A DNA stretch of 64,000 nucleotides, from the NCBI GenBank assembly GCA_964017195.1, contig OZ024890.1, positions 51,329,593-51,393,592 on the forward strand. Direction: 5' to 3'. Each line of letters begins with the position of its first letter. Positions within the stretch are counted from its first letter, which is position 1. This DNA comes from Siderastrea radians. Its lineage: Eukaryota > Cnidaria > Anthozoa > Scleractinia > Rhizangiidae. The notes below the pieces were generated by a model. That model ran no database searches and had not been told where the DNA came from. It saw only the letters and a list, made by a program, of their open reading frames with translations. A program made the position numbers and the translations under genes. Positions 18,506 through 39,473 of this stretch are shown here, piece by piece.

Positions 18506-18880
18506 GGTAGGTCTTGAAGGTGCGGTGGCTTCTGATCGGTCGAGTGCGATCAAGTGACCAGAGGAACTTCCGGTGGAGGAAACCGCCGAGAGGGAAAGAG
18601 TCATTTACTTTGACACCAACTCCGTAGCAAACCAAGGGAAATACAAGTAACTAAAAAAGTCACCACATTGTTCCTTTTTTTTTTTGATAATATGAGTTCC
18701 GTTTTGATAATAGGAGTGTTCCTTTTGATAATACGAGTGTTCCTTTTTGATGAGTTCCTTTTTGATAATATGAGTGTTCCTTTTTGATGTATGGGAAGGA
18801 GGAGGAGATAGTCAGCAAAAGTCACCACATTGTCCGGAACCCGAAAAACTATACCTTGCTGACTCAAGCCCAACACCCGT
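18505..18880. other. Mosaic left subterminal region with polymerase scraps
   Basis: 18505-18525 is an exact 21-bp reverse complement of polymerase gene bases 39394-39414. 18527-18598 is a diverged extra copy of the terminal-repeat unit. 18817-18876 is a same-strand, diverged copy of polymerase gene bases near 39293-39352, still readable as HHIVRNPKNYTLLTQ. 18660-18790 has tandem units like gttcctttttgataatatgag. The left end therefore looks assembled from copies of the right end. Confidence 0.75.
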
Positions 18881-19159
18881 CGAATTGGAGGAGGAGGAGG
18901 AGGAGATCCAAGCCAGGAAGCAGCCAAGCAAGCAAGAATGTTAGATCAACCAGGCCCATTAGACCAAAGGAATAATCAGATCATCGATGAGTGTGAAAAC
19001 ATGAAATGGGCCGGTGGTTTTTATAAGGAAATCAAAGGGTCACGTGGGAGGGAAGGGACCAATGAGAGAAAGACCCCATCATGCTTTGGGAGGGGAAGAG
19101 GTGGGGGTACCCCCCTCCCCCCTCCTTAGATAGACCATCAGGCATTGCGCGGATCGGGG

Positions 19160-19167
19160 TATATAAG
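19160..19167 (+). promoter_or_regulatory. TATA-like box for the first gene
   Basis: tatataag lies 83 nt before the likely ATG at 19243, after the G- and C-run segment at 19096-19130. A box with a longer leader is plausible but not proven. Confidence 0.5.
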
Positions 19168-19242
19168 TCAAGGGAGGCCACAGGACGCCATTCCTAGCTT
19201 TGAGCCGGTCTCTGTGACTTATGCCAGTTGAGGAAAGCAGAA

Positions 19243-19767
19243 ATGTCGGAAACGAGAAGGCCCTTGGGTTCCCTATGCTGTGAAATGAATGTGGGAGGAG
19301 AGGAGGTGTTGAGGAGACGTGTTGGCCCTGAGCGAACGCCAGTGGAACGCCATACGATGCGTATGCATGAAATGCGACAAGAAGCGTGGCGGGGTCTGAC
19401 CCGGGAGCGCGTGGCCGCCTTTCTTCGTTTGTTTGTGCTCTGTTTCGTGGAACTGGAAAATGGCCTCCCACTCCACCCTATCACCTATAGGATGTTAAAG
19501 AAAAAGTTGGTGAGAAGGGTCATCCCATGGATCCATTTTCGTTTGGTTTACACCATGGAGGAGAGGTGGTGGCCGATCACCCTGGCCCAGTTCCGTGAAG
19601 TGAATGGCTACTTGGCGGACCACCTGCCGCGGATCCACAAGGACGACGCATGGGATGCCATTCGTTATTTTTACGAGGAAGTGCTCAAACAGCGGGAGGA
19701 GTACAAACGGATGGAACAGATGGAGAAGGAGGCCAGGGAGAGTGTACGACGTGTGTTGGAGTTGTAA
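19243..19767 (+). CDS. Hypothetical basic protein, 174 aa
   Basis: Leftmost intact gene of the element; I do not recognise its family. The first ATG in frame is at 19243 (MSETRRP). The upstream in-frame start codon at 19228 is TTG and is less likely. The protein is rich in Arg and Glu, has an aromatic middle (RWWPITLAQF) and ends in a charged, probably coiled-coil helix (YKRMEQMEKEARESVRR). There is no signal peptide and no clear membrane segment. It is followed by about 260 bp of AT-rich sequence before the end of the convergent SLOG gene. Confidence 0.7.
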   Translation: MSETRRPLGSLCCEMNVGGEEVLRRRVGPERTPVERHTMRMHEMRQEAWRGLTRERVAAFLRLFVLCFVELENGLPLHPITYRMLKKKLVRRVIPWIHFRLVYTMEERWWPITLAQFREVNGYLADHLPRIHKDDAWDAIRYFYEEVLKQREEYKRMEQMEKEARESVRRVLEL

Positions 19768-20030
19768 ATAGACTTTGAACATTCCTGTTGAGTTTTTTAT
19801 TGTGAGTCAAGACGCATGTGAGTCAAGAGCAACTATTTATGATGAACGTGCAAAACCAGTGTTGTCAGTTTTTTATTTTAATTAAAAAGAAGAGTTCATG
19901 TTTTTTACAAAGGGTTGTCTGTCTTGTTGCCACGCAGGGGCGCACCTATTTACAATTGGAAAAAACTACAATTGGAAAAAATAAAAACTAAAAAGGACTA
20001 TGTACAATTCCAAAAGTAAAAACTAAGAAA

Positions 20031-20723
20031 TTACAAATGAAAGTCTTCCAGTTCCATACGTAATTGATCAATGTTCTCGGGGAGACAGAAGGTGCGGTTG
20101 AACAAGGCTTGAATTTCAGCTCGGGTTTTCTCGTCCACCTCCCGGGATCCTACCACAGCACTGCTTTGATGAAGGGTGGGCTTTTTGGGTCCCCAAGGGA
20201 CAAATTGACTGCCAGTGACCAGGGTGGCGGCATTCTCGTTGACTTGGTAGTAATGGTCCGAGCGGTACCACGTTTGACTGGGAATGTCAAAGAGATAGAC
20301 GGGTTTGCCTTGATCCATGGCCAATTGCACAGTCCAACCGGTTCCCCCTTTCACGCGTTTATGATCCGGTTCCAAGATGCCAAAGGCATAGATGGTATGG
20401 GCTTTCTTGGCCAATTGATAATTGCGTTGCAGCAATTGCAGGGTGTAAAAATGACTGGGCATTCGTTTCCCTAGTTTCTCCGCTGCCTGGTGAAGATGGG
20501 GATTGGCCAACATCAGCACTTCCACGGTGGACGGGGTGATGAACGTGGCTCGAGGATGGTTTGGGGGGACGAGCACTTCGACTTGCATCCCAAACTGTTT
20601 GCCCAGTTGTTCGGCGAGTTCATCCGTGCCTTTGGCGCCCCCAGTGTAGACCACATGACCATGACCAATCTGCAGTTCCAAGGCATCCACATCGTGTTCT
20701 CCGATCATGATGTCTGGGGGCAT
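20031..20723 (-). CDS. SLOG-domain (DprA/YspA-like Rossmann) nucleotide-binding protein
   Basis: 230 aa, one of the few leftward genes. The start was set at the ATG 20723 because a TATTTAA box lies 40 nt upstream; the longer frame to 20753 begins with TTG. Residues 26-34 read YTGGAKGTD, the glycine-rich nucleotide-binding loop of SLOG proteins. Residues 110-116 (TIYAFGI) and 126-141 (GGTGWTVQLAMDQGKP) match the second conserved strand and loop of the family. The element VVGSR, usually N-terminal, sits near residues 190-194, which suggests a circularly permuted domain. SLOG proteins bind nucleotides or nucleotide-derived signals and act as sensors or enzymes in prokaryotic conflict systems. 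The ligand is unknown. It shares a promoter region with the GRF zinc-finger gene. Confidence 0.75.
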   Translation of the reverse strand: MPPDIMIGEHDVDALELQIGHGHVVYTGGAKGTDELAEQLGKQFGMQVEVLVPPNHPRATFITPSTVEVLMLANPHLHQAAEKLGKRMPSHFYTLQLLQRNYQLAKKAHTIYAFGILEPDHKRVKGGTGWTVQLAMDQGKPVYLFDIPSQTWYRSDHYYQVNENAATLVTGSQFVPWGPKKPTLHQSSAVVGSREVDEKTRAEIQALFNRTFCLPENIDQLRMELEDFHL

Positions 20724-20762
20724 GGCTTTGGAGAATGACGATTCAGGGAGCAAGGGACCCTC

Positions 20763-20769
20763 TTAAATA
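20763..20769 (-). promoter_or_regulatory. TATTTAA box of the SLOG gene
   Basis: On the minus strand tatttaa lies 40 nt upstream of the ATG at 20723, the same spacing as the TATA box of the divergent gene. Confidence 0.55.
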
Positions 20770-20776
20770 GGAACAC

Positions 20777-20899
20777 CTGACCAATGGGAAGACAAGAGGT
20801 CCTTATAAGGTCATAACAAGCTGACCAATGGGAAGACAAGAGGTCCTTATAAGGTCATAACAAGCTGACCAATGAGAGCCAAGGGTCCAAGGTATAAAA
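20777..20899. promoter_or_regulatory. Divergent promoter with 44-bp tandem repeats and CCAAT boxes
   Basis: Units start with ctgaccaatg at 20777, 20821 and 20865 (two full copies and one partial), each containing a CCAAT box; the full copies also contain ccttataagg. A TATAAAA box at 20893-20899 lies 40 nt before the rightward ATG at 20933. The region separates the SLOG gene (minus) from the GRF gene (plus) and probably drives both. Confidence 0.75.
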
Positions 20900-20932
20900 A
20901 GGCAGGGGCGGGTGAAAAAAATCGTGAGCACG

Positions 20933-21823
20933 ATGTCAGTCGATCGGAAGAGAAAGCCAAGCGACCTTCCTTCGGGGAAGAAGAAGAAGAAGACTATTCA
21001 AACGATGACGCCCGTGGACTGTGATCCGGTGGTAGGGGAGGTGGTGGAAGATACCCGAGCGGCGGTGGAAGATATGATGAAAGAATTGAATGACATGGCG
21101 GAGCAATCTACACCCCAATTCACTCTGATGACTGTGTTTGACAATGAGGTGGGTCATCATCCAATCAAAGACAACAACAAGGAAAAGGTGGACTATATGG
21201 TATGCCCTTACCATGACGTGCGTTTGGAGGCCCGAGAATCTCAAAAGGGGTGGAAGTATGTGAAATGTCCCATCCAACCCTGTTTGCTGTTTTGTGGTCA
21301 AGATCAAGCTCTGGAGTATATGAAAGCCGTGTATAGTCAACCTCATACAGAAGTGTTGGACATGTGGACTTGTTTGCAGTGTTTTTGCCGGGAACCCGCC
21401 ACGCTGCAACAGAGCCATTCGACCCAGAACCCCGATCGTTTGTTTCTGAATTGTTCCAAGAAAACGTGTGGCTTCTTCCGATGGGCCGATCAACCCTTGG
21501 GTCCCAAGTACTGGAGTTGGTTTCATGACAACCCGCCCAAGAAAGCCGATCAACAAGCTGAATCTCCTTTGTCTACCCGGGATGCGCAAGGATATCCCAA
21601 GCGGGGCTATGACATCCCAGGGCCACCTCCTCGAGCCCCCAGGAAAGAGGATCGCCCCCTGACAGATTATGAGAAACAATTGTTGCGAGAAATTCAAGAG
21701 CTCAAGAACCGTCAAGAAATGATGGTGGCCCCAGCGCCACCACCCCCCAAGTACAGTGACAGTGTGGAGAACTGGCAGAAAGATCTCGAGACCGTCACTT
21801 ATGGGCGTCTAGGTCTCTTTTAA
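20933..21823 (+). CDS. GRF-type zinc-finger protein
   Basis: 296 aa; ATG 20933 lies 40 nt after a TATA box. The N-terminus is basic (KKKKK near residues 16-20) and may be a nuclear signal. Residues 91-121 hold a Cys/His cluster (C91, H94, C112, C117, C121). Residues 147-186 form a GRF zinc finger: C147 and C150, NPDRLFLNC with C174, C179, and then FFRWAD. GRF fingers bind single-stranded nucleic acid in topoisomerase III, APE2 and related repair proteins. A proline-rich linker and a short coiled coil (about 255-280) follow. The likely role is DNA replication, repair or late transcription of the element. It precedes a small gene and the integrase. Confidence 0.8.
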   Translation: MSVDRKRKPSDLPSGKKKKKTIQTMTPVDCDPVVGEVVEDTRAAVEDMMKELNDMAEQSTPQFTLMTVFDNEVGHHPIKDNNKEKVDYMVCPYHDVRLEARESQKGWKYVKCPIQPCLLFCGQDQALEYMKAVYSQPHTEVLDMWTCLQCFCREPATLQQSHSTQNPDRLFLNCSKKTCGFFRWADQPLGPKYWSWFHDNPPKKADQQAESPLSTRDAQGYPKRGYDIPGPPPRAPRKEDRPLTDYEKQLLREIQELKNRQEMMVAPAPPPPKYSDSVENWQKDLETVTYGRLGLF

Positions 21824-21866
21824 TGGTTTAAAAAAGGAGTAGGAATAAATTTTTTTTATTTAGTCC

Positions 21867-22229
21867 ATGGAGTCTGTTGTGTGTGATGCGTGGGAGTCTG
21901 TCTTGTCCCTGGTGGATTGGCAATGCCATCAAACCCTGTGCCAAGTGTTATATGATCACCAACCAGGGGCCAAGATCCCGATTCCTCCCTGTCCCGAGGA
22001 CACGCACCCTCTTCACATCTTTGAAGAAACCCACGTCGACCGCAACCTGTATCGATGGGTGGTGTTTGTCTTATGGTTAAAAGCCCACCCAGAGGCGTGG
22101 CGATGGTATCGAATCATTCAAAAGGCGCATCCCCACACCATCCCCACCATATCGACGTTATGGGATGAATGCCAGAACGTATGGCCCCTCGAAAGAAAAC
22201 TCAACGCTGGTCAACAACAACAAAGTTGA
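21867..22229 (+). CDS. Hypothetical Trp/His-rich protein, 120 aa
   Basis: ATG 21867 sits in a good context (ccatgg). The protein is rich in Trp, His and Cys, with an HP-rich centre (DTHPLHIFEETHVD) and YRWVVFVLWLKAHPEAWRWY, which looks like an amphipathic helix. No family is recognised. Its last 61 bases overlap the start of the integrase gene in another frame, so the two are probably translated from linked transcripts. Confidence 0.6.
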   Translation: MESVVCDAWESVLSLVDWQCHQTLCQVLYDHQPGAKIPIPPCPEDTHPLHIFEETHVDRNLYRWVVFVLWLKAHPEAWRWYRIIQKAHPHTIPTISTLWDECQNVWPLERKLNAGQQQQS

Positions 22230-23341
22230 AGAGAACCAAACGCCCTGTCTCGTCGTCAACGAAGAAAAGCAAGGTCTCGCAACAATGGTTAAACCGTTAC
22301 CACGATCCTAGCGCCCCGGGGAGTTTAGGTGGGGTGCAACGATTTGCCAAAGCCCAGGGCCTCCCGTTGAAAAAAGCCCAACGACTCTTGGAACAGGATG
22401 TGGGCTACACCTTGCATAAACCACGACGTCGTCGTTTTGCTACCTTACCCGTGGTCGTAGGGGGGTTGGACGATCAATGGGCCGCGGATTTAGTGGAAGT
22501 GCAACGGTTGGCCAAACATAATCGGGGTATACGCTACTTATTGACCGTCGTGGATGTCTTGTCCAAGTACGCATGGGTGCAACCGTTGAAAACCAAAACC
22601 GGCGTGGCCCTCGTGAAAGCCTTTGAGAAGATTGTGAGACAAGGAGGGCGGCACCCCAACCGATTGCAAACGGATCGAGGGAAAGAATTTTACAATCGGA
22701 CCTTTCAACGATGGGTCGACGAGCAAGACATTCACCATTTTTCCACCGAAGGGGATGCCAAAGCCAGTGTGGTGGAACGATTTAACCGCACCTTGAAAGA
22801 ACGGTTGTACCGTTATTTGACCACGGCCAACACCTTACGCTTTGACAATGTCTTACCCCAGTTGGTGCAAGGGTATAATGCCACCCGTCATCGAAGTATT
22901 GGCATGCCCCCCGAAAACGTGACGTGGGACAACGAAGAAGCCGTGTGGAAACGATTGTACAGCAAGCGATTGAAAGGCTACAAAAAACCCCAATTCAAAG
23001 TCGGGGATCGGGTCCGTCTGAACACGATTCATCGGACCTTTGAAAAAGGCTATCTCCCCGGTTGGACCGAAGAAGTGTTTGTGGTGCATCGTGTGATCCC
23101 GGGCCCCGTGCCCACCTATAAGATTCACGAATGGGATGAGACCCCCATCCAAGGCACGTTTTATGAAGAGGATTTACAAAAAGTCCAGGTGTCCGACGTG
23201 TTTCGCATCGAAAAGGTACTTAAGCGTCAAAAAGATCGTTGGTTGGTCAAGTGGAAAGGGTGGCCCGACAAGTACAATAGTTGGATTGCTCGAGGTGACG
23301 TGACATCCCTTCGACCGCGCAAACGACGCCGACGCCGCTAA
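22169..23341 (+). CDS. Retroviral-type (rve/DDE) integrase with chromodomain
   Basis: 390 aa. The catalytic triad is visible: D107 (WAADLVE), D169 (LQTDRGKEF) and E203 (VVERFNRTLKE), a D,D(33)E spacing. A basic N-terminal region (residues 1-90) precedes the core. An SH3-like segment (FKVGDRVRL, about 276-284) follows it, and a C-terminal chromodomain (about 345-374, RWLVKWKGWPDKYNSW) leads to an Arg-rich tail. Polinton integrases join the terminal repeats to target DNA and leave 6-bp duplications, as seen here. The chromodomain could bias insertion towards methylated histones. All key residues are present, so the enzyme may be active. Confidence 0.95.
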   Translation: MPERMAPRKKTQRWSTTTKLKRTKRPVSSSTKKSKVSQQWLNRYHDPSAPGSLGGVQRFAKAQGLPLKKAQRLLEQDVGYTLHKPRRRRFATLPVVVGGLDDQWAADLVEVQRLAKHNRGIRYLLTVVDVLSKYAWVQPLKTKTGVALVKAFEKIVRQGGRHPNRLQTDRGKEFYNRTFQRWVDEQDIHHFSTEGDAKASVVERFNRTLKERLYRYLTTANTLRFDNVLPQLVQGYNATRHRSIGMPPENVTWDNEEAVWKRLYSKRLKGYKKPQFKVGDRVRLNTIHRTFEKGYLPGWTEEVFVVHRVIPGPVPTYKIHEWDETPIQGTFYEEDLQKVQVSDVFRIEKVLKRQKDRWLVKWKGWPDKYNSWIARGDVTSLRPRKRRRRR

Positions 23342-23345
23342 AACA

Positions 23346-24386
23346 ATGACGTTCGTCCCCAATTCGTCGTTTTACGTGACGTTGATGAGTCATGCGAGTA
23401 CCAAAGAGTTTCCGGGCAACAAAGCCCATCTGTTCCGAAACCGGTTGCCGAAACCCATTCGATTTATGGGACGCGGATGGATGGTGGGCATGGCGAGTTT
23501 ATCCTTACCCACCATTCCGGTGGTGGCGGAAGAAGGAGGCGTGGGCGAATCCCACCCTCTGTTGTATGTACGATGGCACGAACGCGTGCATGACAAAGAC
23601 GATTTGGGGAACGATGTCTGGTGGCATCAACGTCGCGAACTCTTTACCTACGGTCGAGATATGAAAGAGGAATTGGCCTCGTCGACGGGATCGCACTTGT
23701 TTCATCAACTGGTGTACCGGTACGAGCAAAGCCGTGCCAAACAAACCCAACCCCTCAAGAAATGGGCAGAGAACAATGGCGTCAAATTGTACCCGACCTT
23801 TGAATGGACCTCCGACGGGGATTTGGTGTTGAATACCGTCAATGTGGATTACAAACGACAAGTGGCCCGCGTGGAATGGGGTAGAACCTTGGCCTTGAGA
23901 ATGGGATGGATTGAACAAGTGTCGACGGGAGTCTATCGATTGGGGCCCAATATCCTACAAGAATTTCATTCGGACTCGATTCCTACCCCGTCGGATGTCG
24001 TGGATGGCAGCAATAAACCCGCCTTTTGGAAAGTGGATGGGGATTATATGAACTTGAGTATGACCTGTAATTGGCGGTTTGTGAATTTGAACGCGACCTT
24101 TCGGCCCTCGTTGGAATTTCCCTCGGTGCGTCCTTTGCACGTGTATTGTGATGTCGGGACCAGTAGTATGGTAGGGGGTCGCATCACGGATCTCTTACGA
24201 GAAATCAAGTACCAACCCAAAGAAACCACGCACTTTGAACCGCGTCATATTCAATATGTCCCGGTACGCAATGAAGTGGTGGAAATCGTGGAAACGCAAA
24301 TGGCCGAAATCAATGGGGATCTCGCCCAATTTGGCGAAGGGCATACCCTCCTGACCCTCCACTTTAAAAGGGAGGTGGTGGTGTGA
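23346..24386 (+). CDS. Minor capsid (penton-like) protein A
   Basis: 346 aa; ATG 23346 follows the integrase stop by 4 nt. The N-terminus NSSFYVTLMSHASTKEFPGN followed by RLPKPI and GRGWMVGM has the layout of the Polinton protein taken to be the single jelly-roll minor capsid or penton protein (FYVTL-S...FP-N...L-P...W-VG). Near residues 255-310 are TDLLRE and HFEPRHIQYVPVRNEVVE, also shared with the next gene. It would form the fivefold vertices of the particle. The penton label rests on family pattern, not on a structure. Confidence 0.75.
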   Translation: MTFVPNSSFYVTLMSHASTKEFPGNKAHLFRNRLPKPIRFMGRGWMVGMASLSLPTIPVVAEEGGVGESHPLLYVRWHERVHDKDDLGNDVWWHQRRELFTYGRDMKEELASSTGSHLFHQLVYRYEQSRAKQTQPLKKWAENNGVKLYPTFEWTSDGDLVLNTVNVDYKRQVARVEWGRTLALRMGWIEQVSTGVYRLGPNILQEFHSDSIPTPSDVVDGSNKPAFWKVDGDYMNLSMTCNWRFVNLNATFRPSLEFPSVRPLHVYCDVGTSSMVGGRITDLLREIKYQPKETTHFEPRHIQYVPVRNEVVEIVETQMAEINGDLAQFGEGHTLLTLHFKREVVV

Positions 24387-24397
24387 AGCAGACAAAG

Positions 24398-25450
24398 ATG
24401 TCGTTCTACGTGACGTTACCCAGTCATTCCAACCGACGTGAATTTCCCAACAACCAAGCCAATAACTTCAAGATTCGTCTACCGAAACCGTTACAACTCA
24501 CAGGGGGTGGATGGCAAGTGGGGTTGAGCGCCATTTCCTTACCGGATGCGCGCGTCAATTTGTACGAGTTGGTGAAGAAAAATGGGTACGTCATGGGGAC
24601 GTCCTGGGATCAAACCTATCCCAAACCGAATGGAAAAGATGGGGAAATGACCTCGCGAGTAGACATCGCGCGAACCATCATCGATGACGTGAAAGATTTG
24701 GATTGGGTGGTGGATGGGGTGAGTTTCATGAAAGCCATCATTGCTCACTTGGAACAACAACGTATGGAATTGGCCATTCAAGGTGGCCGGTTTACCAATG
24801 ATCAAGGCAAACACACCTACATCAAGTTTCGTTGGGAAGGCGAGGATCTGCTCATCGACAACACGAATGTCTGTCATTGCGGCAACAAAACACCTTCCCT
24901 AACTATCTATACCAAGTTAGCACTCAAGATGGGATGGTTACGTCAAATTGACACTGTATTGACGTTGGGGCCAAACTTACAACAAGAATTCATCGGGGAT
25001 CAAATCCCCAACATGACAAAACCAGCCGTTGACAACGATTGGAACGATGTGAACGACGATCAGAGCAAGGCGGTCTTTTGGACGGTGCGTTCGTTTTTAC
25101 CGGATTATTTACAATTGAGTATGAGTTGTCATTGGCGTTTCACGAACTTGAATGTGGCGTTTCGGGCGGTGGTGGGGGAACCCACACGATCATTGCACGT
25201 GTACTCGGACGTGGCAGGCAGCACTATGGTGGGCAATCGCGTGACCGATTTGTTGCGTGAAATCCAGTACAAGCGACAAGCACGAGGCACCCTGTACTTT
25301 GAACCGTTGCACATTCAATACATGGCTCTTCGTAACGAGGTGGTGGAAATGATTCATGTTCAAGTCGCCGAAACGATTGGTAGAGGAGGAGACTTGGTCA
25401 AGTTTGGTGAAGGTCATACCATTGTCACGTTACACTTCAAAAAGGCATAA
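24398..25450 (+). CDS. Minor capsid (penton-like) protein B, paralogue of A
   Basis: 350 aa. The open frame begins with GTG at 24383, overlapping the previous stop, but the first ATG is 24398 (MSFYVTLPSHSN), which aligns with the start of protein A. Shared blocks include FYVTL.SH, EFP.N, GW.VG, ALKMGW/ALRMGW, LGPN.QQEF/LGPNILQEF, TDLLREI and FGEGHT. This is an ancient tandem duplication, since identity is limited to conserved blocks. Two vertex or spike proteins could assemble as a mixed penton or serve different roles. Confidence 0.75.
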   Translation: MSFYVTLPSHSNRREFPNNQANNFKIRLPKPLQLTGGGWQVGLSAISLPDARVNLYELVKKNGYVMGTSWDQTYPKPNGKDGEMTSRVDIARTIIDDVKDLDWVVDGVSFMKAIIAHLEQQRMELAIQGGRFTNDQGKHTYIKFRWEGEDLLIDNTNVCHCGNKTPSLTIYTKLALKMGWLRQIDTVLTLGPNLQQEFIGDQIPNMTKPAVDNDWNDVNDDQSKAVFWTVRSFLPDYLQLSMSCHWRFTNLNVAFRAVVGEPTRSLHVYSDVAGSTMVGNRVTDLLREIQYKRQARGTLYFEPLHIQYMALRNEVVEMIHVQVAETIGRGGDLVKFGEGHTIVTLHFKKA

Positions 25451-25483
25451 AAAAGAGAGTCGAGAAGGAACCCCCAGTCAATC

Positions 25484-25720
25484 ATGCCACCGAAACGACG
25501 ACGACGACGACAACGACGCCGAAAACAAGCTCCCCAAGCGGGGGAAGGGATCAACGCAGTGATTGCGGGAATTCCTAAAACGGCCTGGTCCATCACCAAA
25601 GGGCTAGAAAAGTTGGCGAAAAAGAATGCCAGAAAATCGCATTTGAAACGCATGGAGGAAATCCGACAAGGAAAACGAAAACGCTATGCGGGGGAATCGT
25701 TTACGTGCAGCCTCATGTGA
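25484..25720 (+). CDS. Small Arg-rich core protein (GEG site), 78 aa
   Basis: It starts MPPKRRRRRQRRRKQAP, followed by QAGEGINAVIAGIPKTAW and a basic C-terminal half. The basic segment, then Gly-x-Gly, then a hydrophobic helix is shared with several other small genes here and resembles the layout of adenovirus core precursors processed by adenain. It probably packages DNA and may be matured near residue 21. It lies 33 nt after penton B and before a TATAAAA box. Confidence 0.7.
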   Translation: MPPKRRRRRQRRRKQAPQAGEGINAVIAGIPKTAWSITKGLEKLAKKNARKSHLKRMEEIRQGKRKRYAGESFTCSLM

Positions 25721-25721
25721 G

Positions 25722-25728
25722 TATAAAA
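25722..25728 (+). promoter_or_regulatory. TATAAAA box before the 108-aa core protein
   Basis: TATAAAA starts just after the previous stop codon and lies 77 nt before the ATG at 25799. Confidence 0.6.
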
Positions 25729-25798
25729 AGAGACGAGCCCCCTGTGAAAAACAACCAAAGGCATCCCTGGTGAAGAAGAAGAAGAAGAAGAAGACACC

Positions 25799-26125
25799 AT
25801 GCGTGGGGGAAGTTTGACACGATTTCGAACCGACGAGTGGTATGATCAACAAGGCAAAGGGTTGGCGACGGATCTGATGCGTGGGGGGTTGCAAGGTCTT
25901 ATAAGGACGCGAAATCCTTTAAAACTGCCTAGTAATATCAAGAGAGGCTTGACAACGGGTTTGACACGCGGGATCAAACGCAAAGCCGAAGACGCCCTTA
26001 AAAAGGAAATCACCAAACAAGCCAAGAAAGCGTTGAGTAATAAGAGCGTGAAAGACGCCGTGCGGGTCGCCAGTGCCTTATTTCCCAAACAAACCAAACG
26101 GGCGCGTGATATTTTGGGCGTGTGA
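25799..26125 (+). CDS. Small basic virion/core protein, 108 aa
   Basis: It starts MRGGSLTRFRTDEW and contains a second basic/RGG-like motif (LMRGGLQGL) near residue 28. The middle and C-terminus are Lys-rich and helical, ending RARDILGV. The two RGG sites are candidate cleavage points for the element's protease. By position (before the major capsid gene) and composition it is a core or cement protein; no specific homologue is claimed. Its stop overlaps the start region of the next gene. Confidence 0.65.
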   Translation: MRGGSLTRFRTDEWYDQQGKGLATDLMRGGLQGLIRTRNPLKLPSNIKRGLTTGLTRGIKRKAEDALKKEITKQAKKALSNKSVKDAVRVASALFPKQTKRARDILGV

Positions 26126-26127
26126 AC

Positions 26128-26355
26128 ATGGAGCCCGTGCATTCACGACCTCGACGGATTCGTAGTAATCGAGGGTTGACTCAATGGGGTGGACTGTATC
26201 CGTTTTGGAAACTGATGCGACGACAACGTGGCGGTTGGTTGAGTCCCGAGGTGATGAGACTGCCCGGGTTTGATTTGAGACAACATTTAGCACGACGACG
26301 GTATAAAAACCCCTCACGGCGACGACGTACCACCACTCGACGACGACGACGTTAA
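26128..26355 (+). CDS. Small Arg-rich protein (QRGGW site), 75 aa
   Basis: The ATG at 26128 (MEPVHSRPRR) is preferred over an in-frame GTG at 26122. Residues about 30-38 read LMRRQRGGWL, the recurrent basic/RGG junction. The C-terminus is a run of Arg and Thr codons (RRRRTTTRRRRR), suggesting DNA binding. It ends 2 nt before the major capsid ATG, and a TATAAAA box for the capsid gene is embedded in it at 26302-26308. Confidence 0.65.
   Translation: MEPVHSRPRRIRSNRGLTQWGGLYPFWKLMRRQRGGWLSPEVMRLPGFDLRQHLARRRYKNPSRRRRTTTRRRRR
26302..26308 (+). promoter_or_regulatory. TATAAAA box of the major capsid gene
   Basis: TATAAAA lies 56 nt before the ATG at 26358, inside the preceding coding region. 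Confidence 0.65.
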
Positions 26356-26357
26356 AC

Positions 26358-27758
26358 ATGCCTGACGTGAGTACACAAACCGCCCCGGCTCACGAGCGTT
26401 CCGAAGGGACCGTCAACCCAGCGTTACGGATTTTCAAGGTGCCCCCGACCGACATTAGCATCAATGCCTATCGCATGGTCACCATCCAACCCACCACCAC
26501 GGGCATCAATCCCATGGAATTCATCATTCCGGGATTAGACGATTTTGTGGATTTGGGACGCAGTTACTTTACCATGGAATTGAGATTGAAGAAAAGTACC
26601 AATGGCAACTTGGTGGCCGATGAAAACTTGTGGCCCGTCAACAATTTAGCCCATTCCATCATCAAACAAATTGACTTGCAGTTGAATGGCACGTTGATCA
26701 GTCCTCAATCCGACACCTATCATTACAAAGCGTACCTGGAAAGCTTGCTGAATTTTGACCGAGAAGATGGCAAGACCGTGTTGGGACCCCAAGGATGGTT
26801 CAATCAAGTGGATTTCCCACCCCAATGGACTGCTGCCAACGTAGACTTTGGTACCCCTAATGCAGCCTGGACCAATCTCCCTGCCAATCACAAAGGAGCC
26901 TTGGCCGCCATGGTAGCCGAAACCGCCAAGTATGCAGGAGGTGTCACCCACAGTCTGGTGTTTACCCCCCACCTGGAAGTGTTTCACACCGGCAAATTGT
27001 TAGTGCCTGGCATTGAAATCAAGATGAAATTTCATTTCAATAGCCCGGCCCTGTTTTTCAATGGAGTGGCTCTGGCAGGTCGATTGATGGAAGGCGATGT
27101 GAAACTACGGTTTCATCTCTGCCAACTGCGTTTGAATGACGCCATCTACCAGAGTTTGTCTGAAAAAAGACACAATGAAGGCCAAGTGGCGGCTTACCCG
27201 ACCGTCCGCAGTGAAATCCGAACCTTCACTATGCAAGACAACCTGGTCCGCTTTGATATCCCTAACCTGTTTCAAAACAGAATACCGGACCGATTGATTG
27301 TGGGGTTGTTGGACAGCCGCGCCTTCAATGGAGATGTGACCCGAGATCCGTTCTGTTTCCAGAAATTTGGGCTGACGTCCATTAAACAGATTGTCAAAGG
27401 CGAAGAATACCCTTATGAAACCCTGCAGTTAGTGCACAACAATGGCAGCCGAGATAACTTGGGGTACTTCCGTTTTCTGCAAGCCAGTGGCGCTTGGTGT
27501 AAAAAGAAAGGCAATATGGTAGAACTAGGAGATTGGGGCCAAGCTAAAAATTGTACCTTGTACATGTTTGACAATGTGGCCAATGGATGTGCCGACAGTC
27601 AAAACCTCAACCCCAAGCAAAGTGGAGATTTACAATTGGTCTTGGAATTTGGAGCCGCCCCCGGTGTCAATATAACCGTGCTCGTCTATGGAGAATTTGA
27701 GAACTTGCTGGAGATTGACCGCAACGGAGCCGTGTTGTACAACATTTACCAACACTGA
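26358..27758 (+). CDS. Major capsid protein (double jelly-roll)
   Basis: 466 aa. The N-terminal region IFKVPPTDISINAY, then INPMEFIIPGLDDFVDL and YFTMELRLKK, follows the layout of Polinton double jelly-roll capsid proteins (long ago noted as F54H12.2-like proteins in animal genomes). Further typical blocks are IIKQIDLQLNGTLISPQS with YHYKAYLESLLNF, and GIEIKMKFHFNSP. It forms the hexon-like trimers of an icosahedral shell. The length fits the family and there are no breaks. It is followed after 4 nt by the protease gene, as in many Polintons where shell and maturation genes are linked. Confidence 0.93.
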   Translation: MPDVSTQTAPAHERSEGTVNPALRIFKVPPTDISINAYRMVTIQPTTTGINPMEFIIPGLDDFVDLGRSYFTMELRLKKSTNGNLVADENLWPVNNLAHSIIKQIDLQLNGTLISPQSDTYHYKAYLESLLNFDREDGKTVLGPQGWFNQVDFPPQWTAANVDFGTPNAAWTNLPANHKGALAAMVAETAKYAGGVTHSLVFTPHLEVFHTGKLLVPGIEIKMKFHFNSPALFFNGVALAGRLMEGDVKLRFHLCQLRLNDAIYQSLSEKRHNEGQVAAYPTVRSEIRTFTMQDNLVRFDIPNLFQNRIPDRLIVGLLDSRAFNGDVTRDPFCFQKFGLTSIKQIVKGEEYPYETLQLVHNNGSRDNLGYFRFLQASGAWCKKKGNMVELGDWGQAKNCTLYMFDNVANGCADSQNLNPKQSGDLQLVLEFGAAPGVNITVLVYGEFENLLEIDRNGAVLYNIYQH

Positions 27759-27762
27759 AGAA

Positions 27763-28302
27763 ATGGAACACGTGGCCTTGAATAATGTGCAATTGGATTA
27801 TTTAGCCCGAGACGACCCCCACTTGAAACCTGTCTTTTACGGGACGGTGGCCTGTGATCGTTTACCCAAGAAGCCTGTCAAGACCCCACCCCAAGGGTAC
27901 ATTGTGAACACCGACCCACACGATCAACCCGGACAACATTGGTTAGGGGTGTGGACCGAGGGAAACGTGTGTGAAATCCTCGACAGTTATGCTTTGCCCC
28001 TGGACACGTACGTGCAAGCCGCCCCGTTCCAAGATTGGATGGTGAAACATTGGAAGTATGTGGTGACCAATGGCAAGTCCCTCCAAGCCATTTCAAGCAA
28101 GAGTTGTGGGGATTACGCCTTGTTGTACTTGAAAGCCAAAGCCCGTGGACGGACCTTGCAAGACTTTTTAAATGAGTTTTCCGATCATGATTATGTAAGC
28201 AATGACCATCAAGCCGGTCAACGCGTTCAACAATGGATTGTAGGCCAAGAAGCCAGATGGTATCAACTTTGTTGTCATCCGTATCATCAACGGAATGATT
28301 AA
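27763..28302 (+). CDS. Adenain-like maturation cysteine protease
   Basis: 179 aa from the ATG at 27763; a longer frame open to 27688 overlaps the capsid gene and is unlikely to be used. The catalytic layout of adenain/Ulp1-type proteases is visible: H59 (PGQHWLGVW), D74 (EILDSY), Q108 and C115 (SCGDYALLYL). It would cleave capsid and core precursors during particle maturation, often next to Gly-Gly or Gly-x-Gly, which fits the RGG/GEG sites of the small proteins here. An AATAAA poly(A) signal begins at 28304, right after the stop. Confidence 0.92.
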   Translation: MEHVALNNVQLDYLARDDPHLKPVFYGTVACDRLPKKPVKTPPQGYIVNTDPHDQPGQHWLGVWTEGNVCEILDSYALPLDTYVQAAPFQDWMVKHWKYVVTNGKSLQAISSKSCGDYALLYLKAKARGRTLQDFLNEFSDHDYVSNDHQAGQRVQQWIVGQEARWYQLCCHPYHQRND

Positions 28303-28303
28303 A

Positions 28304-28309
28304 TAAAAT
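28304..28309 (+). terminator. Poly(A) signal after the protease gene
   Basis: AATAAA immediately follows the protease stop codon and precedes the tRNA-like gene. Confidence 0.6.
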
Positions 28310-28330
28310 TCGTTGGAAAAAAAGTGTGTC

Positions 28331-28415
28331 GGAGTCGTAGCTCAGTCGGTAGAGCCTTTGGATCCCCCCGGATACAGGGGAGGATCGCGCGTGGGTTCGA
28401 GTCCCACCGATTCCA
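28331..28415 (+). tRNA. tRNA-like gene with an atypical anticodon arm
   Basis: A seven-base-pair acceptor stem (ggagtcg 28331-28337 with cgattcc 28408-28414, one G-T pair) is followed by a canonical D arm (gctc-agtcggta-gagc). The T arm gtggg-ttcgagt-cccac (28391-28407) is also canonical. The A box (tagctcagtcgg) and B box (ggttcgagtcc) match the polymerase III consensus, and a run of T at about 28430-28436 can terminate it. The middle, 28356-28390, does not fold as a normal anticodon arm. It forms gatcc/ggatc plus cccc/gggg around the loop ggataca, with an unpaired A, and no U33-anticodon-purine loop. It is therefore probably a structured tRNA-like RNA rather than a decoding tRNA. An unusual intron cannot be excluded. 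Confidence 0.75.
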
Positions 28416-28458
28416 ATAAAAAGGTGCCTTTTTTTTCTAAAGGGGTAGTATCGTCATC

Positions 28459-29112
28459 ATGCAAACGGGGAAACCGTTTCGTTTTCATACTCCCTCCTCT
28501 ATCTTGGTGGTAGGACCGTCGGGATGTGGCAAAACCGTGTTTACGGAAAAACTCTTGGTAGACAACCCCGAGTTGTTTGAAAGTCCCCCGACGCAAGTGC
28601 ATTATTGTTATGGCGCGTGGCAAGATCGATTTCAAGGCATGCAAGATCATGGGGTGGTGTTTCACGAAGGGATTCCCGATCATGACGCGTTGGTCCAATG
28701 GTTTCCTCAAGGACAGGGGGTCCTGGTCTTGGATGATTTAATGGATGAAGGGAGTCACGATAAACGCGTGTTGGATTTATTCACCAAACATTCACATCAT
28801 CAAGGGGTGACGGTGCTCTACTTGTGCCAAGACATGTTTCCCGTGGGGCGCTATGCCAAAAGTATATCCCGCAATGCGCATTACATTGTGGCGTTCAAGA
28901 ATCCCCGGGATCAATTAGGGGTACGCAATGTCATGCTGCAATCGTTTCCGACCACCTGGAAAGACACCTTGGAGACGTTTCATCAAGCCACCACGCGCCC
29001 GTATGGCTATTTGATGTTGGATTTACATCCCGCCTCCTCCGATCAACAACGTGTGTTGAGTCACCTGTTAAAAGACGAAGGATGGACACGCACCTATCAA
29101 AAGCGAGTATAA
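28459..29112 (+). CDS. FtsK/HerA-type genome-packaging ATPase
   Basis: 217 aa. The Walker A motif GPSGCGKT is at residues 19-26 and Walker B (GVLVLDDLMDE) at about 87-97. A sensor-like stretch (GVTVLYLCQDMFPVG) and SRNAHYIVAFKNPRD follow, as in the A32-like packaging ATPases of Polintons, adenovirus-like elements and large DNA viruses. It would pump the genome into the empty shell. The length fits the compact Polinton form. It sits between the tRNA-like gene and the glycine-rich protein gene, downstream of the capsid-protease block. Confidence 0.93.
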   Translation: MQTGKPFRFHTPSSILVVGPSGCGKTVFTEKLLVDNPELFESPPTQVHYCYGAWQDRFQGMQDHGVVFHEGIPDHDALVQWFPQGQGVLVLDDLMDEGSHDKRVLDLFTKHSHHQGVTVLYLCQDMFPVGRYAKSISRNAHYIVAFKNPRDQLGVRNVMLQSFPTTWKDTLETFHQATTRPYGYLMLDLHPASSDQQRVLSHLLKDEGWTRTYQKRV

Positions 29113-29114
29113 AG
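29108..29114 (+). promoter_or_regulatory. TATAAAG box before the Gly-rich protein
   Basis: TATAAAG overlaps the ATPase stop codon and lies 45 nt before the ATG at 29153. Confidence 0.55.
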
Positions 29115-29152
29115 GCACGACACCCCCTTTGGAACCGGAAAAAAGAGCAACC

Positions 29153-30046
29153 ATGGCGGATGAGGAGGACCGTCAACCTCCGCAATCGTACGATACCGTG
29201 TCCCCAGCGGGGGTTGGGGCGTCCAGCGGCAATGTCATGTCCCCAAGGGCTTGGCAAGATTTGTATATCTCGGGAGACCAAGGCCTTCTCGACGTGGCCA
29301 TGGAGGAAATGCCCCCTGATCCCCTCTATGAGTTTATGCAATCCATCCCCCCTGCCGACGTCATCGCGAGTTGGCCCGATGTGACTGATGTACCCCCTGC
29401 ACAGGCCTCTTCCCCCGCGGGGGTAGGAAGTCGAGCATCCCATTCACCCTCATTCCATAGCCCCCAGACCACCCCGGAGTCTTCTGGGGCTCGAACGCCT
29501 GCGACGCCTCCTAGCGTACCCCGGGCGGCGGGTGCTCGAACAGCCGCGGGTGCTGGGGGTAATGGGGGTGGACGTGGTGGAGGTGATGGTAGGGGACGCC
29601 GTGGACCTAGGACTAGAGGTGGACGTGGCGGTGGACGTGGCGGTGGTGGTGGTGGTGGTGGTGGTGCTGGTGGTGGTGCTGGCGGTGGAGGAGGAGGAGG
29701 AGGTGCTGGTGGTGCTGGTGGCGGTGGAGGAGGTGGAGGTGGTGGTGGTGGTGGTGGTGGTGGCGGTGGCCGTCGTGGTGGACGACGGGGGCGACGACGC
29801 CGACGCCTTTTCCCCACTTCACCTGCCTCCAGTACTCCTGGATCGTCTGGGGGGTCTGGTAGACAACCTCGTACCTTGCGTCAAGCCGATTTACAACGAC
29901 GTTTACGCATGCTATTACAAGATCAAGAACAATTGGCCCAAGGACGGGAAATTGCTAATGTGACCATGACCAATAGCATTGTGACCAGTTATAAACAAGG
30001 AGGAGCCCCGAGCGTACAAACCTCGTCGTCCCGGGTCTCGCCGTGA
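29153..30046 (+). CDS. Acidic / polyglycine-RGG disordered protein, 297 aa
   Basis: The ATG at 29153 has an ideal context (accatgg) and is preferred to an in-frame TTG at 29129. The N-terminal third is acidic and Pro/Ser-rich, followed by a spacer rich in Pro, Ser and Thr. A long low-complexity block (codons about 29560-29790) of Gly with RGG and RGRG motifs leads to an Arg-rich patch (RRGRRRRRLFP). The last 60 residues form a helical, Gln-rich segment. The repeat is built from ggt/gga triplets and is likely length-variable. RGG domains bind RNA and drive condensation, so a nucleic-acid or assembly role is a guess. It may be a fibre- or scaffold-like protein. Confidence 0.65.
   Translation: MADEEDRQPPQSYDTVSPAGVGASSGNVMSPRAWQDLYISGDQGLLDVAMEEMPPDPLYEFMQSIPPADVIASWPDVTDVPPAQASSPAGVGSRASHSPSFHSPQTTPESSGARTPATPPSVPRAAGARTAAGAGGNGGGRGGGDGRGRRGPRTRGGRGGGRGGGGGGGGGAGGGAGGGGGGGGAGGAGGGGGGGGGGGGGGGGGGRRGGRRGRRRRRLFPTSPASSTPGSSGGSGRQPRTLRQADLQRRLRMLLQDQEQLAQGREIANVTMTNSIVTSYKQGGAPSVQTSSSRVSP
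29630..29770 (+). repeat. GGT/GGA triplet repeat (polyglycine tract)
   Basis: Near-pure ggt, gga and gct codons form an in-frame simple repeat. Open frames on the opposite strand (polyproline) and in the +1 frame (polyvaline) are by-products of it. Confidence 0.9.
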
Positions 30047-30048
30047 GG

Positions 30049-30735
30049 ATGAAAACCCCCGTGTCGTTATTGAATGGATCTCGACGTCCTGGCATCCCCT
30101 TCCCGCCGGAATTGTTACAACGGATGGATTCCTTGTATGCCTTTTACCATCAACAATGGTGGTGTTATCGAAAAATGTTGAATCATTACAAGTGTATCAA
30201 TGCCTTGTTCAATGGTCTGGCGTTACTCCTGATGGCCGCCGGCATGATTGCCGGACCCCTGTTGGACAACAGTACGTTGGTAGCCTGTTTGGCGGCGGTG
30301 GGCACCGTGGTCAAAGGATGGAATGATTTTAAACAATATCGATTTAAAGTGACCATGAGCCGGTTTGCGTTTACTACCTATGCCAAAGCCTTGACCGAAT
30401 TGAAAACCTATGTGAGGGGTGTCCCCTTGGAGGACCTGGAAGGATTTTTAATCAAGATGCAAACGTTGGATGACACCATTGTGGATTTCACCCCTCCGTT
30501 ACCCAAACGATGTGTGCAAGATTACCATGGTCATTTTGTGTACCACCCCGTGGAAGCCCTATGCTATGTAGACGGATGTCCTCGTCCCTTGAAACCCAAA
30601 GACTATTGGAGCCATAAAAAGCCGCTCCCTCCCAGCCCCACACTCTTAGAACCATGGCCCCCCGAAGAAGAAGACGGACAAAAAGAAAAAGAAGAACCCA
30701 GCAAGGAGAAGGCATACCTTGGCTCGTCGACGTGA
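30049..30735 (+). CDS. Two-transmembrane SLATT-like membrane protein
   Basis: 228 aa from the ATG at 30049, just after the previous stop; an upstream in-frame GTG at 30043 is unlikely. An aromatic helix (FYHQQWWCYRKML, about residues 33-45) leads into TM1 (FNGLALLLMAAGMIAG), a short turn, and TM2 (STLVACLAAVGTVVKGW). A long amphipathic basic helix follows (FKQYRFKVTMSRFAFTTY) and then TELKTYVRG. Two tight TM helices followed by a long cytosolic helix is the layout of SLATT domains, the membrane effectors that partner SLOG or cyclase sensors in bacterial conflict systems. The assignment rests on layout, not a database match. The acidic C-terminus overlaps the next gene. Alternatives are a virion membrane protein or a holin-like pore. 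Confidence 0.65.
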   Translation: MKTPVSLLNGSRRPGIPFPPELLQRMDSLYAFYHQQWWCYRKMLNHYKCINALFNGLALLLMAAGMIAGPLLDNSTLVACLAAVGTVVKGWNDFKQYRFKVTMSRFAFTTYAKALTELKTYVRGVPLEDLEGFLIKMQTLDDTIVDFTPPLPKRCVQDYHGHFVYHPVEALCYVDGCPRPLKPKDYWSHKKPLPPSPTLLEPWPPEEEDGQKEKEEPSKEKAYLGSST

Positions 30736-30935
30736 AAAAGGGGTATGAAGTCACAAGTGATTTGGTCAAAGCCTTGAAAAAACCGCAAATGAGTGCTGCC
30801 CAAGGGAGAAAGATGGTATCGGGGTACAAACAACAATATCAAGCGTATAAAAGACGAGGAGGTACCAAAGGGTACAACAGTTGGTTGATCGACAAAGGCT
30901 ATGCCAAAAAACCTAACAAGTGTTGTATCCAATGA
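30654..30935 (+). CDS. Small Arg/Lys-rich core protein (GEG site), 93 aa
   Basis: It starts MAPRRRRRTKRKRRTQQGEG followed by IPWLVDVKKGYE. The basic run and GEG junction repeat the pattern of the 25484 gene. The C-terminal half is Lys/Tyr-rich (YKQQYQAYKRRGGTKGYNSW) with another RGG, ending in CCIQ. The ATG (accatgg context) lies inside the end of the SLATT-like gene, in another frame. It is probably a DNA-condensing core protein cleaved by the protease. Confidence 0.7.
   Translation: MAPRRRRRTKRKRRTQQGEGIPWLVDVKKGYEVTSDLVKALKKPQMSAAQGRKMVSGYKQQYQAYKRRGGTKGYNSWLIDKGYAKKPNKCCIQ
30846..30852 (+). promoter_or_regulatory. TATAAAA box inside the 93-aa core gene
   Basis: TATAAAA lies 86 nt upstream of the next ATG at 30932. 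Confidence 0.45.
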
Positions 30936-31264
30936 AACGTCTTCGACGTCAACGCAGAAAAAGGAAACAACGAGGAGGAGCTTTAATGCGTCGCAAACCC
31001 CGTTTGGTGGATAAAATTGCCCACGGCATGAGTATGTTTCTCTCAGGCCCCGCGCCTGGGTTTGGACTGGCTTTAGGCAAATTAGGAGGGCAAGCCTTAA
31101 AAGGCATTACTGATAATGTACAACATTACCGCCGACGACAACGAGGTGGGGGTTGGTGGTCCGATTTGAAACGCAATACCCGTCAAGGCTATAAAGAGAC
31201 GCAAGACCTCATCAAACAAAACAAAGCCCTTCAACGTGTCTTGTCGCACTCATGGTATCCTTGA
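30932..31264 (+). CDS. Core protein with two RGG junctions, 110 aa
   Basis: The ATG at 30932 (MKRLRRQRRKRKQRGGALM) overlaps the previous stop by 4 nt, in another frame; an in-frame TTG at 30920 is unlikely. There are two basic/RGG junctions, KRKQRGGALM near residue 15 and YRRRQRGGGWW near residue 70. A hydrophobic Gly/Ala-rich segment between them (SGPAPGFGLALGKLGGQAL) could interact with membranes. Two sites suggest cutting into three peptides, as with adenoviral core and cement precursors. The C-terminus is charged and helical. Confidence 0.7.
   Translation: MKRLRRQRRKRKQRGGALMRRKPRLVDKIAHGMSMFLSGPAPGFGLALGKLGGQALKGITDNVQHYRRRQRGGGWWSDLKRNTRQGYKETQDLIKQNKALQRVLSHSWYP
31190..31196 (+). promoter_or_regulatory. 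TATAAAG box before the 58-aa gene
   Basis: TATAAAG lies 62 nt before the ATG at 31252. Confidence 0.45.
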
Positions 31265-31428
31265 AGAGAAGACGCCGACGACGACGACGACGTCAACGCG
31301 GTGGTTTTTTAAATCTATTGGTCCCTGCCCTGACGGGATTGGGGAAAGCCGTGGCCTTGGAAACGGATAAACGTATAAAACGCACGATTCAAAAAGCCAA
31401 TCAACGCTATCGTCGCCGTCACCGATAA
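31252..31428 (+). CDS. Tiny Mu/pX-like core peptide precursor, 58 aa
   Basis: A 58-codon gene: MVSLKRRRRRRRRRQRGG, then a short hydrophobic stretch (FLNLLVPALTGLGKAVAL) and a basic tail ending RRRHR. Basic run, RGG, hydrophobic segment and basic tail is the same layout as the precursor of the adenovirus Mu (pX) core peptide; that is a layout resemblance, not proven homology. It overlaps the previous gene by 13 nt in another frame and is followed after 3 nt by the next ATG. Nine consecutive Arg codons favour DNA condensation. Confidence 0.7.
   Translation: MVSLKRRRRRRRRRQRGGFLNLLVPALTGLGKAVALETDKRIKRTIQKANQRYRRRHR
31374..31380 (+). promoter_or_regulatory. TATAAAA box before the 108-aa conserved gene
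   Basis: TATAAAA lies 58 nt before the ATG at 31432, inside the 58-aa gene. Confidence 0.5.
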
Positions 31429-31431
31429 ACG

Positions 31432-31758
31432 ATGCAACGTCTTCGACGTCAATTGCCGTTTTTACGCTCCATGTTACAAGAAGCCAATGGTTCCAAACGT
31501 CAAGAGTTGTTACAACATGCCAATGCCGATCAAATCAATGCCGTGAGTGAACTGGTCTTGAACTTTTTAAAAAACAAGATTCCCGTCACACCCCCCATGC
31601 TGGCTAAACTTCAACCCTATAAAAGGGTGCTACGCGATTTGGGACGTCGTCGACATTCCGTCAAAAAACGTCGGGCGTGGTTGGTTCAACAAAAAGGACG
31701 CGGCTTGTTTCAAGGACTTCACGAGGTGTTATGTCAATGTGCTCGACCGACCCGTTAA
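31432..31758 (+). CDS. Conserved Polinton small basic protein, 108 aa
   Basis: The core reads QINAVSELVLNFLKNKIPV, then KLQPYKRVLRDLGRRRHSV and KKRRAWLVQQKGRGLFQGL. This arrangement (I-S-E-x-x-x-N-x-L-K-x-x-x-P, a basic helix, KRK/KRR, and a Gly-rich site before a hydrophobic tail) recurs in animal Polintons and adintoviruses, where the function is unknown. The G-R-G near residue 93 may be another protease site. It is likely a virion core protein. The end overlaps the next start in a different frame. Confidence 0.7.
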   Translation: MQRLRRQLPFLRSMLQEANGSKRQELLQHANADQINAVSELVLNFLKNKIPVTPPMLAKLQPYKRVLRDLGRRRHSVKKRRAWLVQQKGRGLFQGLHEVLCQCARPTR

Positions 31759-31970
31759 CCCTGGCCACATGGATCACCCTGTTACAAGAGGCCAATCGGG
31801 CCACCGACCAGTGGAAAGACGAGTGTCATTATTGGAAGCATAAATATCACCTGTTGTATCGAGAGTACAGGCACATCTTAAAGGCCCGTCTTTGTGAGAG
31901 CTGTCGTCAAATAGAAGACGGGGAACTTTGCTCCGAGTGTAGTCAACCCCCATGGATGCAGTCTACATGA
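31731..31970 (+). CDS. Small zinc-ribbon protein, 79 aa
   Basis: The ATG at 31731 (MSMCSTDPLT) overlaps the end of the previous gene; longer upstream reading is a shadow frame. The N-terminal two thirds form a Trp/Tyr-rich helix (DECHYWKHKYHLLYREY). The C-terminus has CESC...CSEC (CxxC-x8-CxxC), a compact zinc ribbon. A TATAAAA box lies 113 nt upstream (31618-31624). The last 19 nt overlap the next gene. Its function is unknown; late-gene regulators in related viruses often carry such ribbons. Confidence 0.6.
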   Translation: MSMCSTDPLTLATWITLLQEANRATDQWKDECHYWKHKYHLLYREYRHILKARLCESCRQIEDGELCSECSQPPWMQST

Positions 31971-32608: not shown

Positions 32609-32611
32609 ACG

Positions 32612-39430: not shown

Positions 39431-39473
39431 AAACCCCAACAAGATCGTCGATTGTAATGAACATTAAGGAACA

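What the first reader, a model, noticed from the sequence alone, without database searches (positions are those of the whole stretch)
20031..30735. Possible SLOG sensor plus SLATT-like membrane effector carried by one Polinton
The leftward gene at 20031-20723 shows SLOG nucleotide-binding motifs (YTGGAKGTD and GGTGWTVQLAMDQGKP). The rightward gene at 30049-30735 has two adjacent TM helices followed by a long basic helix, the layout of SLATT effectors. In bacteria SLOG and SLATT domains are known to work as sensor and membrane effector in conflict systems. Finding both in an animal-integrated virus suggests a nucleotide-signal module used for superinfection exclusion, timed lysis or interference with host cyclic-nucleotide immunity. 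The pairing is an inference; the genes are not adjacent.
Basis: partly seen in the sequence, partly recalled or inferred. Interest (0 to 1): 0.9.

Follow-up and report, generated by a model that had tools for sequence, protein, structure and literature searches.

The report
Polinton SLOG and SLATT-like genes
A virus-like mobile element in a large eukaryotic genome really carries two genes related to parts of bacterial immune systems, but they look like two separate virus tools, one of phage type and one a membrane protein, more than like a matched sensor and effector pair.

The parts
18133..18138 (.). target-site duplication CAAGTA, left
   Evidence: read directly
18139..39966 (.). Polinton/Maverick element, 21,828 bp, ends AGTAGT...ACTACT, terminal inverted repeats
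   Evidence: inverted arms 18129-18508 with 39471-39976 in several pieces; ends read; end motif (AGT)2//(ACT)2 as in PMC8097293 section 7
19243..19767 (+). 174-aa ORF of unknown function between the repeat and SLOG; no Pfam match
20031..20723 (-). circularly permuted SLOG protein, 230 aa, phage DprA-like/cpYpsA type
20933..21823 (+). GRF zinc-finger protein, 296 aa, divergently oriented neighbour of SLOG (25.6 bits, cut-off 25.9)
21867..22229 (+). 120-aa ORF; the first gene inward of the exchanged cassette
22169..23341 (+). rve integrase with chromodomain-like C-terminus (chromodomain 23.0 of 25.1 bits)
23346..25450 (+). two tandem related 346/350-aa ORFs, presumed minor capsid proteins (name recalled/inferred; the first has no Pfam match, the second was not scanned)
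26358..27758 (+). 466-aa ORF, presumed major capsid protein (name inferred from position and recall; no Pfam match)
27688..28302 (+). adenovirus-type protease, weak match
   Evidence: E 0.02, below cut-off
28459..29112 (+). P-loop ATPase, presumed packaging ATPase (Pox_A32 19.6 of 22.8 bits)
30049..30735 (+). SLATT_1-like two-transmembrane protein, 228 aa
32612..32971 (+). phospholipase A2-like protein, 119 aa
   Evidence: E 3.4e-11
35273..39430 (+). family B DNA polymerase, 1385 aa
   Evidence: E 2.1e-44
39967..39972 (.). target-site duplication CAAGTA, right

Best explanation
The element carries two separately acting virus proteins. The SLOG is a circularly permuted nucleotide-binding protein of the kind found in tailed phages; it is part of an exchangeable end cassette with a divergently oriented GRF zinc-finger gene, and most likely binds (perhaps cleaves) a small nucleotide or nucleic-acid ligand early in infection, either to blunt a host nucleotide-based alarm or to serve viral DNA/nucleotide metabolism. 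The SLATT-like protein is a two-helix membrane hairpin encoded among the virion genes, which most likely oligomerises to permeabilise a membrane at entry or exit, upstream of a phospholipase A2 gene. Shown: folds or families, gene order, co-retention, selection, cassette exchange. Inferred: timing, ligand, pore activity, any immune role.
For: SLOG aligns end to end with three phage proteins, including the C-terminal G[ST]R strand. Of three phage records opened, one has it stand-alone directly before thymidylate synthase (L012) and two have it inside very large CDSs, one of them annotated as virion RNA polymerase (L011, L013). Of the eight BFVD matches at E 0.001 or better, the four that carry a name are phage proteins, E 2.5e-11 to 5.1e-10. 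SLATT keeps its place ATPase - SLATT - small basic ORFs - PLA2 in divergent copies (L045 and L048 in full, L046 and L047 in part). Cassette exchange in one copy read in pieces: presumed capsid gene 94%, protease 89%, SLATT 86%, 120-aa ORF 87% identical, but GRF gene 40% and SLOG 40%. Omega medians: SLATT 0.111, ATPase 0.073, PLA2 0.080, SLOG 0.096.
Against: No biochemistry, expression or ligand data. Co-retention is so regular that a functional link cannot be excluded, and the exchanged gene is again a SLOG, as if some SLOG were required. The SLATT fold prediction is poor (pLDDT 62, no PDB match at E 0.001).
Confidence: 0.55

Rival explanations
1. SLOG and SLATT form a sensor and membrane-effector pair: SLOG senses a nucleotide and gates the SLATT pore for superinfection exclusion or timed lysis.
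For: The two domain families are coupled in bacteria (Pfam's names; PMC9503650 passages). Co-retention: 62 pairs between two lists of 150, rotation control mean 3.0, maximum 13; 20 of 20; 20 of 20; 4 of 4 divergent copies; 10 of 11 further pieces that reached the place; 41 of 45 in a diverged SLOG lineage; 17 shared contig lengths in database hits against 0.02 by shifted control.
Against: Genes of one 22-kb element tend to co-occur whatever their function, so co-retention alone is weak. Genes 9.3 kb apart on opposite strands. A SLATT 84-94% identical to the window's goes with a SLOG about 40% identical to the window's. L042 keeps two intact SLOG ORFs and no SLATT, though it is a deletion derivative.
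Confidence: 0.15
2. The SLOG protein is a DprA-like helper of DNA metabolism (single-strand binding, recombination or end processing) that works with the neighbouring GRF zinc-finger protein, not an immune-signal protein.
Against: DprA Pfam and TIGR00732 cut-offs not met; the better fold match is 3imk, not DprA; the GRF match is just under its cut-off; being inside the repeat may be hitchhiking.
Confidence: 0.25
3. The 228-aa protein is an ordinary viral two-helix membrane or virion protein whose SLATT likeness is superficial.
For: Below cut-off for the window protein; a similar-strength match to Exosortase_EpsH; poor model; second helix weak in most relatives.
Against: 28 of 34 aligned proteins match SLATT_1 and 4 of 7 rescanned relatives pass its cut-off, with Exosortase_EpsH below its own in all 7.
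Confidence: 0.2

Closest known systems
SLATT proteins of polinton-like viruses of cryptophytes (PMC12220804, which also cites an earlier report in PLVs)
   Same: SLATT protein in a Polinton-related virus; proposed membrane pore
   Different: Protist viruses, SLATT_4 named for two transcripts, the cryptophyte group described as lacking lipases; here SLATT_1-like, in a Polinton that also has PLA2, together with a SLOG
Phage DprA-like proteins, PHROG 768 (Klebsiella phage Pylas, crAss-like cr109_1, Escherichia phage PBECO4)
   Same: Same permuted SLOG, GGTxW loop, RN motif and C-terminal G[ST]R
   Different: At most 35% identity in the listing; stand-alone or inside giant phage proteins, not in a Polinton
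cpYpsA SLOG family, 3imk (putative molybdenum carrier; its place in cpYpsA is recalled)
   Different: Pfam cpYpsA cut-off not met; 17% identity; longer protein
Bacterial SLOG/SMODS-SLATT conflict systems
   Same: Both domain families present
   Different: Not adjacent or fused, opposite strands, no specific co-variation
Vertebrate Mavericks (PMC8097293, section 7 read)
   Same: Core genes, end motif (AGT)2//(ACT)2, accessory regions at the ends; an unassigned ORF pm between ATPase and pz genes
   Different: No SLOG or SLATT named (the searches did not return this paper); whether pm is SLATT-like was not tested

Membership tests
Polinton/Maverick | PolB, rve integrase, inverted repeats, 6-bp target duplication | tested here: met
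PHROG 768 phage DprA-like | profile match over the domain | tested here: met
   E 2.4e-10, residues 20-148; exchanged SLOG E 3e-12
SLOG superfamily | Rossmannoid domain with GG-x-G loop; here permuted with the GSR strand last | tested here: met
Pfam cpYpsA PF12694 | gathering score | tested here: not met
   17.3 of 26.2 bits
DprA proper (PF02481, TIGR00732) | gathering score | tested here: not met
   17.6 of 29.6; best of 36 relatives E 7.5e-6, 25.7 bits; note that two relatives, P0159 and P0206, carry a precomputed PF02481 label
LOG phosphoribohydrolase | PGGxGTxxE catalytic motif (recalled) | tested here: not met
   KGGTGWTVQ, no Glu at that place
SLATT_1 PF18181 | gathering score | tested here: inconclusive
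   window protein 20.4 of 26.3; relatives P0254, P0255, P0256, P0258 pass, P0015, P0021, P0251 do not
SLATT | two TM helices then a long helix | tested here: met
   window protein, (TM2 weak, low-confidence model; both helices called in only 5 of 34 relatives)
SLOG-SLATT sensor-effector system | genes fused or adjacent (recalled) | tested here: not met
   9.3 kb apart, opposite strands
SLOG-SLATT sensor-effector system | partners co-vary | tested here: not met
   SLATT 84-94% with SLOG about 40%, three SLATTs read
SLOG-SLATT sensor-effector system | ligand-gated membrane effect | not testable with these tools
   needs an assay

The most novel reading that the evidence does not exclude
Polintons require some SLOG of phage type for defence against host nucleotide alarms, and any such SLOG can still gate the conserved SLATT pore through a shared ligand, so that a bacterial-style nucleotide and membrane switch runs inside a eukaryotic virus.
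Probability: 0.12. Interest if true: 0.85.

Novelty: new variant of a known kind. Interest (0 to 1): 0.5.

Why it matters
A 2022 survey of 21,191 viral proteomes stated that SLOG domains were found only in Caudoviruses and NCLDVs (PMC9503650, passages); this element puts one in a Polinton. Phage proteins are the only kin outside the Polinton-type homologues that sequence searches found here; giant-virus proteins matched by fold only and weakly. It gives a concrete candidate for a viral counter-signal or DNA-processing protein in capsid-encoding elements with at least 150 scored gene copies in one genome, and natural recombination has separated that gene from the SLATT lineage, which makes the pairing idea testable.

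Tried and rejected
Sensor-effector pairing: rejected as the best reading because of the cassette exchange and the SLOG-only derivative. LOG-type enzyme: the catalytic Glu (motif recalled) is absent. Solved-structure searches by sequence gave nothing useful. Foldseek for the SLATT model gave no match at E 0.001, and for the SLOG model none at E 0.001 either (3imk first at 0.019). IMG/VR scans with SLATT, the presumed capsid protein and the ATPase found no relatives; the SLOG scan found two contigs, which read like phages by eye. PADLOC gave only a weak ShosA hit for SLOG and none for SLATT. An ATPase-anchored search of the genome, meant as an unbiased survey for Polintons lacking either gene, did not complete, so independence in full-length elements remains untested. 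Pieces L049 and L050 did not reach the SLATT place. Of the 14 pieces, 10 hold a SLOG, L082, L083 and L086 did not reach its place, and L073 had no SLOG at the expected place, with a short polymerase match instead. 4 of 45 L057-type copies and 8 of 17 mid-divergent SLOG copies had no listed SLATT partner and were not followed up; of the other 9 mid-divergent copies 8 show the expected geometry.

Note on bias: genome lists are the best-scored candidates only (150 scored of 1326 first-look candidates for SLOG, 150 of 2171 for SLATT), so counts are lower bounds and favour intact copies. No stop in 150 of 150 SLOG rows and in 145 of 150 SLATT rows. Contig lengths were typed from the 120 best rows of 325 and of 199; some rows with short contigs were left out.
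Full report
Observation. Both ORFs exist as described. They lie in one integrated Polinton whose ends I read directly: 18139-39966, AGTAGT...ACTACT, flanked by the 6-bp duplication CAAGTA. The element has an rve integrase with a chromodomain-like end, a family B polymerase, a P-loop ATPase, a weak adenovirus-type protease match and a PLA2-like protein; the capsid names used here are inferred or recalled.

SLATT. P0002 is a two-helix hairpin with a long following helix (low confidence). SLATT_1 scores 20.4 bits for the window protein, below the cut-off of 26.3, but 28 of 34 aligned proteins match and 4 of 7 rescanned relatives pass. I call it SLATT_1-like. The same protein matches Exosortase_EpsH about as weakly, which I take for hydrophobic helix likeness. 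In the window a Gly-rich ORF (29153-30046) lies between the ATPase and SLATT. In divergent copies SLATT stands between the ATPase and small basic ORFs, upstream of PLA2 (L045, L048; partly L046, L047).

Co-occurrence. In the same genome, 62 SLOG-SLATT pairs fall out of two lists of 150; all have opposite strands and the window's order, 61 of them at 9.8-11.0 kb and one at 4.9 kb; random rotation gives a mean of 3.0 and a maximum of 13. Of 88 SLOG copies without a listed partner, 20 drawn at random all have SLATT in place. Of 88 SLATT copies without a listed partner, 20 drawn at random all have a SLOG in place, one cut by the piece's edge, one with an apparent frameshift and one (L057) only 41% identical. 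SLATT was found in 4 of 4 divergent copies whose fetched piece reached that place; two more did not reach it. Of 14 further pieces at the expected SLOG place of diverged SLATT copies, 10 hold a SLOG, 3 did not reach the place and 1 (L073) has none. In database hits, 17 contig lengths are shared between 103 SLATT and 95 SLOG contig lengths, against 0.02 by shifted lengths.

Selection. Pairwise Nei-Gojobori estimates: SLATT in 20 copies chosen by SLOG plus the window, 210 pairs, median omega 0.111, no stops in 21; ATPase 0.073 (207 usable of 210 pairs, 1 of 21 with a stop); PLA2 0.080 (190 pairs). SLOG in 20 copies chosen by SLATT plus the window, 190 usable of 210 pairs, median omega 0.096, no stops in the stretches matched, two of which are partial. 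Both genes are kept like core genes. Copies were drawn from best-match lists, which lowers these values.

Decoupling. The L057-type SLOG forms its own lineage: 45 rows at 94-100% identity to that query, 41 of them with a SLATT at 10.0-11.2 kb in the same geometry. Three of those SLATTs were read: 94, 86 and 84% identical to the window's, while the SLOG of these three copies is 40-42% identical over the part read. In one copy read in pieces, the presumed capsid gene (94%), protease (89%), SLATT (86%) and 120-aa ORF (87%) are close to the window's, but the GRF gene (40%) and SLOG (40%) are not, and a short ORF like the N-terminal part of PolB (28%) stands before SLOG. The first 58 residues of the integrase, next to the 120-aa ORF, are 59% identical, so the boundary is not perfectly sharp by protein. 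So the outer cassette with GRF and SLOG was replaced, apparently as a unit, beside a conserved core that holds SLATT. A dedicated pair should not tolerate this easily; but the replacement is again a SLOG, so a SLOG of some kind appears to be wanted.

SLOG alone. In the listing I count by eye ten pairs of SLOG copies pointing outward, 3.7-16.6 kb apart. One, L042, was read: inverted arms of 1343 nt at 100% each hold a SLOG ORF of 226 aa; between them is one ORF of 100 aa or more, of 235 aa; of 20 window ORFs used as queries only SLOG and the 174-aa ORF match (the polymerase was not among the queries). It is an internally deleted derivative, so it shows that SLOG can be carried without SLATT, not that an autonomous virus does so.

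Function. SLATT proteins were reported in cryptophyte polinton-like viruses (n = 868) with an endosomal-escape pore hypothesis based partly on the lack of lipases (PMC12220804, section 13 part 1). Here PLA2 is present too, so that argument does not carry over directly, but a membrane role at entry or exit remains the simplest. SLATT is required in the bacterial DRT10 defence, mechanism open (PMC12632851, passages). Viral SLOGs were proposed to process or sense ADP-ribose type alarms, and were stated to be known only from Caudoviruses and NCLDVs (PMC9503650, passages). Full-text searches for 'SLOG' with 'polinton' and 'DprA' with 'polinton' returned 0 papers each, and 'SLATT' with 'Maverick' 10, of which only the cryptophyte paper is on topic by title. 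A preprint on horizontal transfer among animal viruses that treats adintoviruses has no 'SLOG' in its text (PMC11071296, passages). The adintovirus description was not held; its text is unseen.

Verdict. Two true domains in one element, well conserved, with an unexpected phage-type SLOG; the joint signalling module is not supported by gene order or by natural recombination, and is not excluded. Ordinary part: SLATT in a Polinton relative. Unusual part: the permuted SLOG in an exchangeable end cassette.

Noticed in passing
L042 (G000:C1:72543500-72552000): Internally deleted Polinton derivative of roughly 7.5 kb with an intact SLOG ORF in each terminal repeat and a 235-aa ORF with a zinc-finger-like start and acidic tail (by eye) between.
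   Followed up: partly
L057, L074-L080: A second end cassette: a diverged SLOG beside a short ORF similar to the N-terminal part of the Polinton polymerase.
   Followed up: partly
window 31432-31758: 108-aa ORF in the virion block has a weak match to Effector-associated domain 8 (E 0.015, below cut-off).
   Followed up: no
L011 (NC_055892) and L013 (MH899585): SLOG domains embedded in giant phage proteins, one annotated virion RNA polymerase; the crAss-like frame shows internal stop codons under the standard code, as expected of a recoded phage (recalled).
   Followed up: partly
G000: Very high copy number: 1326 SLOG and 2171 SLATT first-look candidates in one 805-Mb genome, many scored copies near-identical, which suggests recent spread.
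   Followed up: no
window 20933-21823: GRF zinc-finger protein as the divergent neighbour of SLOG; diverged together with it in the one exchanged cassette that was read.
   Followed up: partly
window 29153-30046: 297-aa ORF before SLATT with a long glycine-rich tract, low complexity.
   Followed up: no
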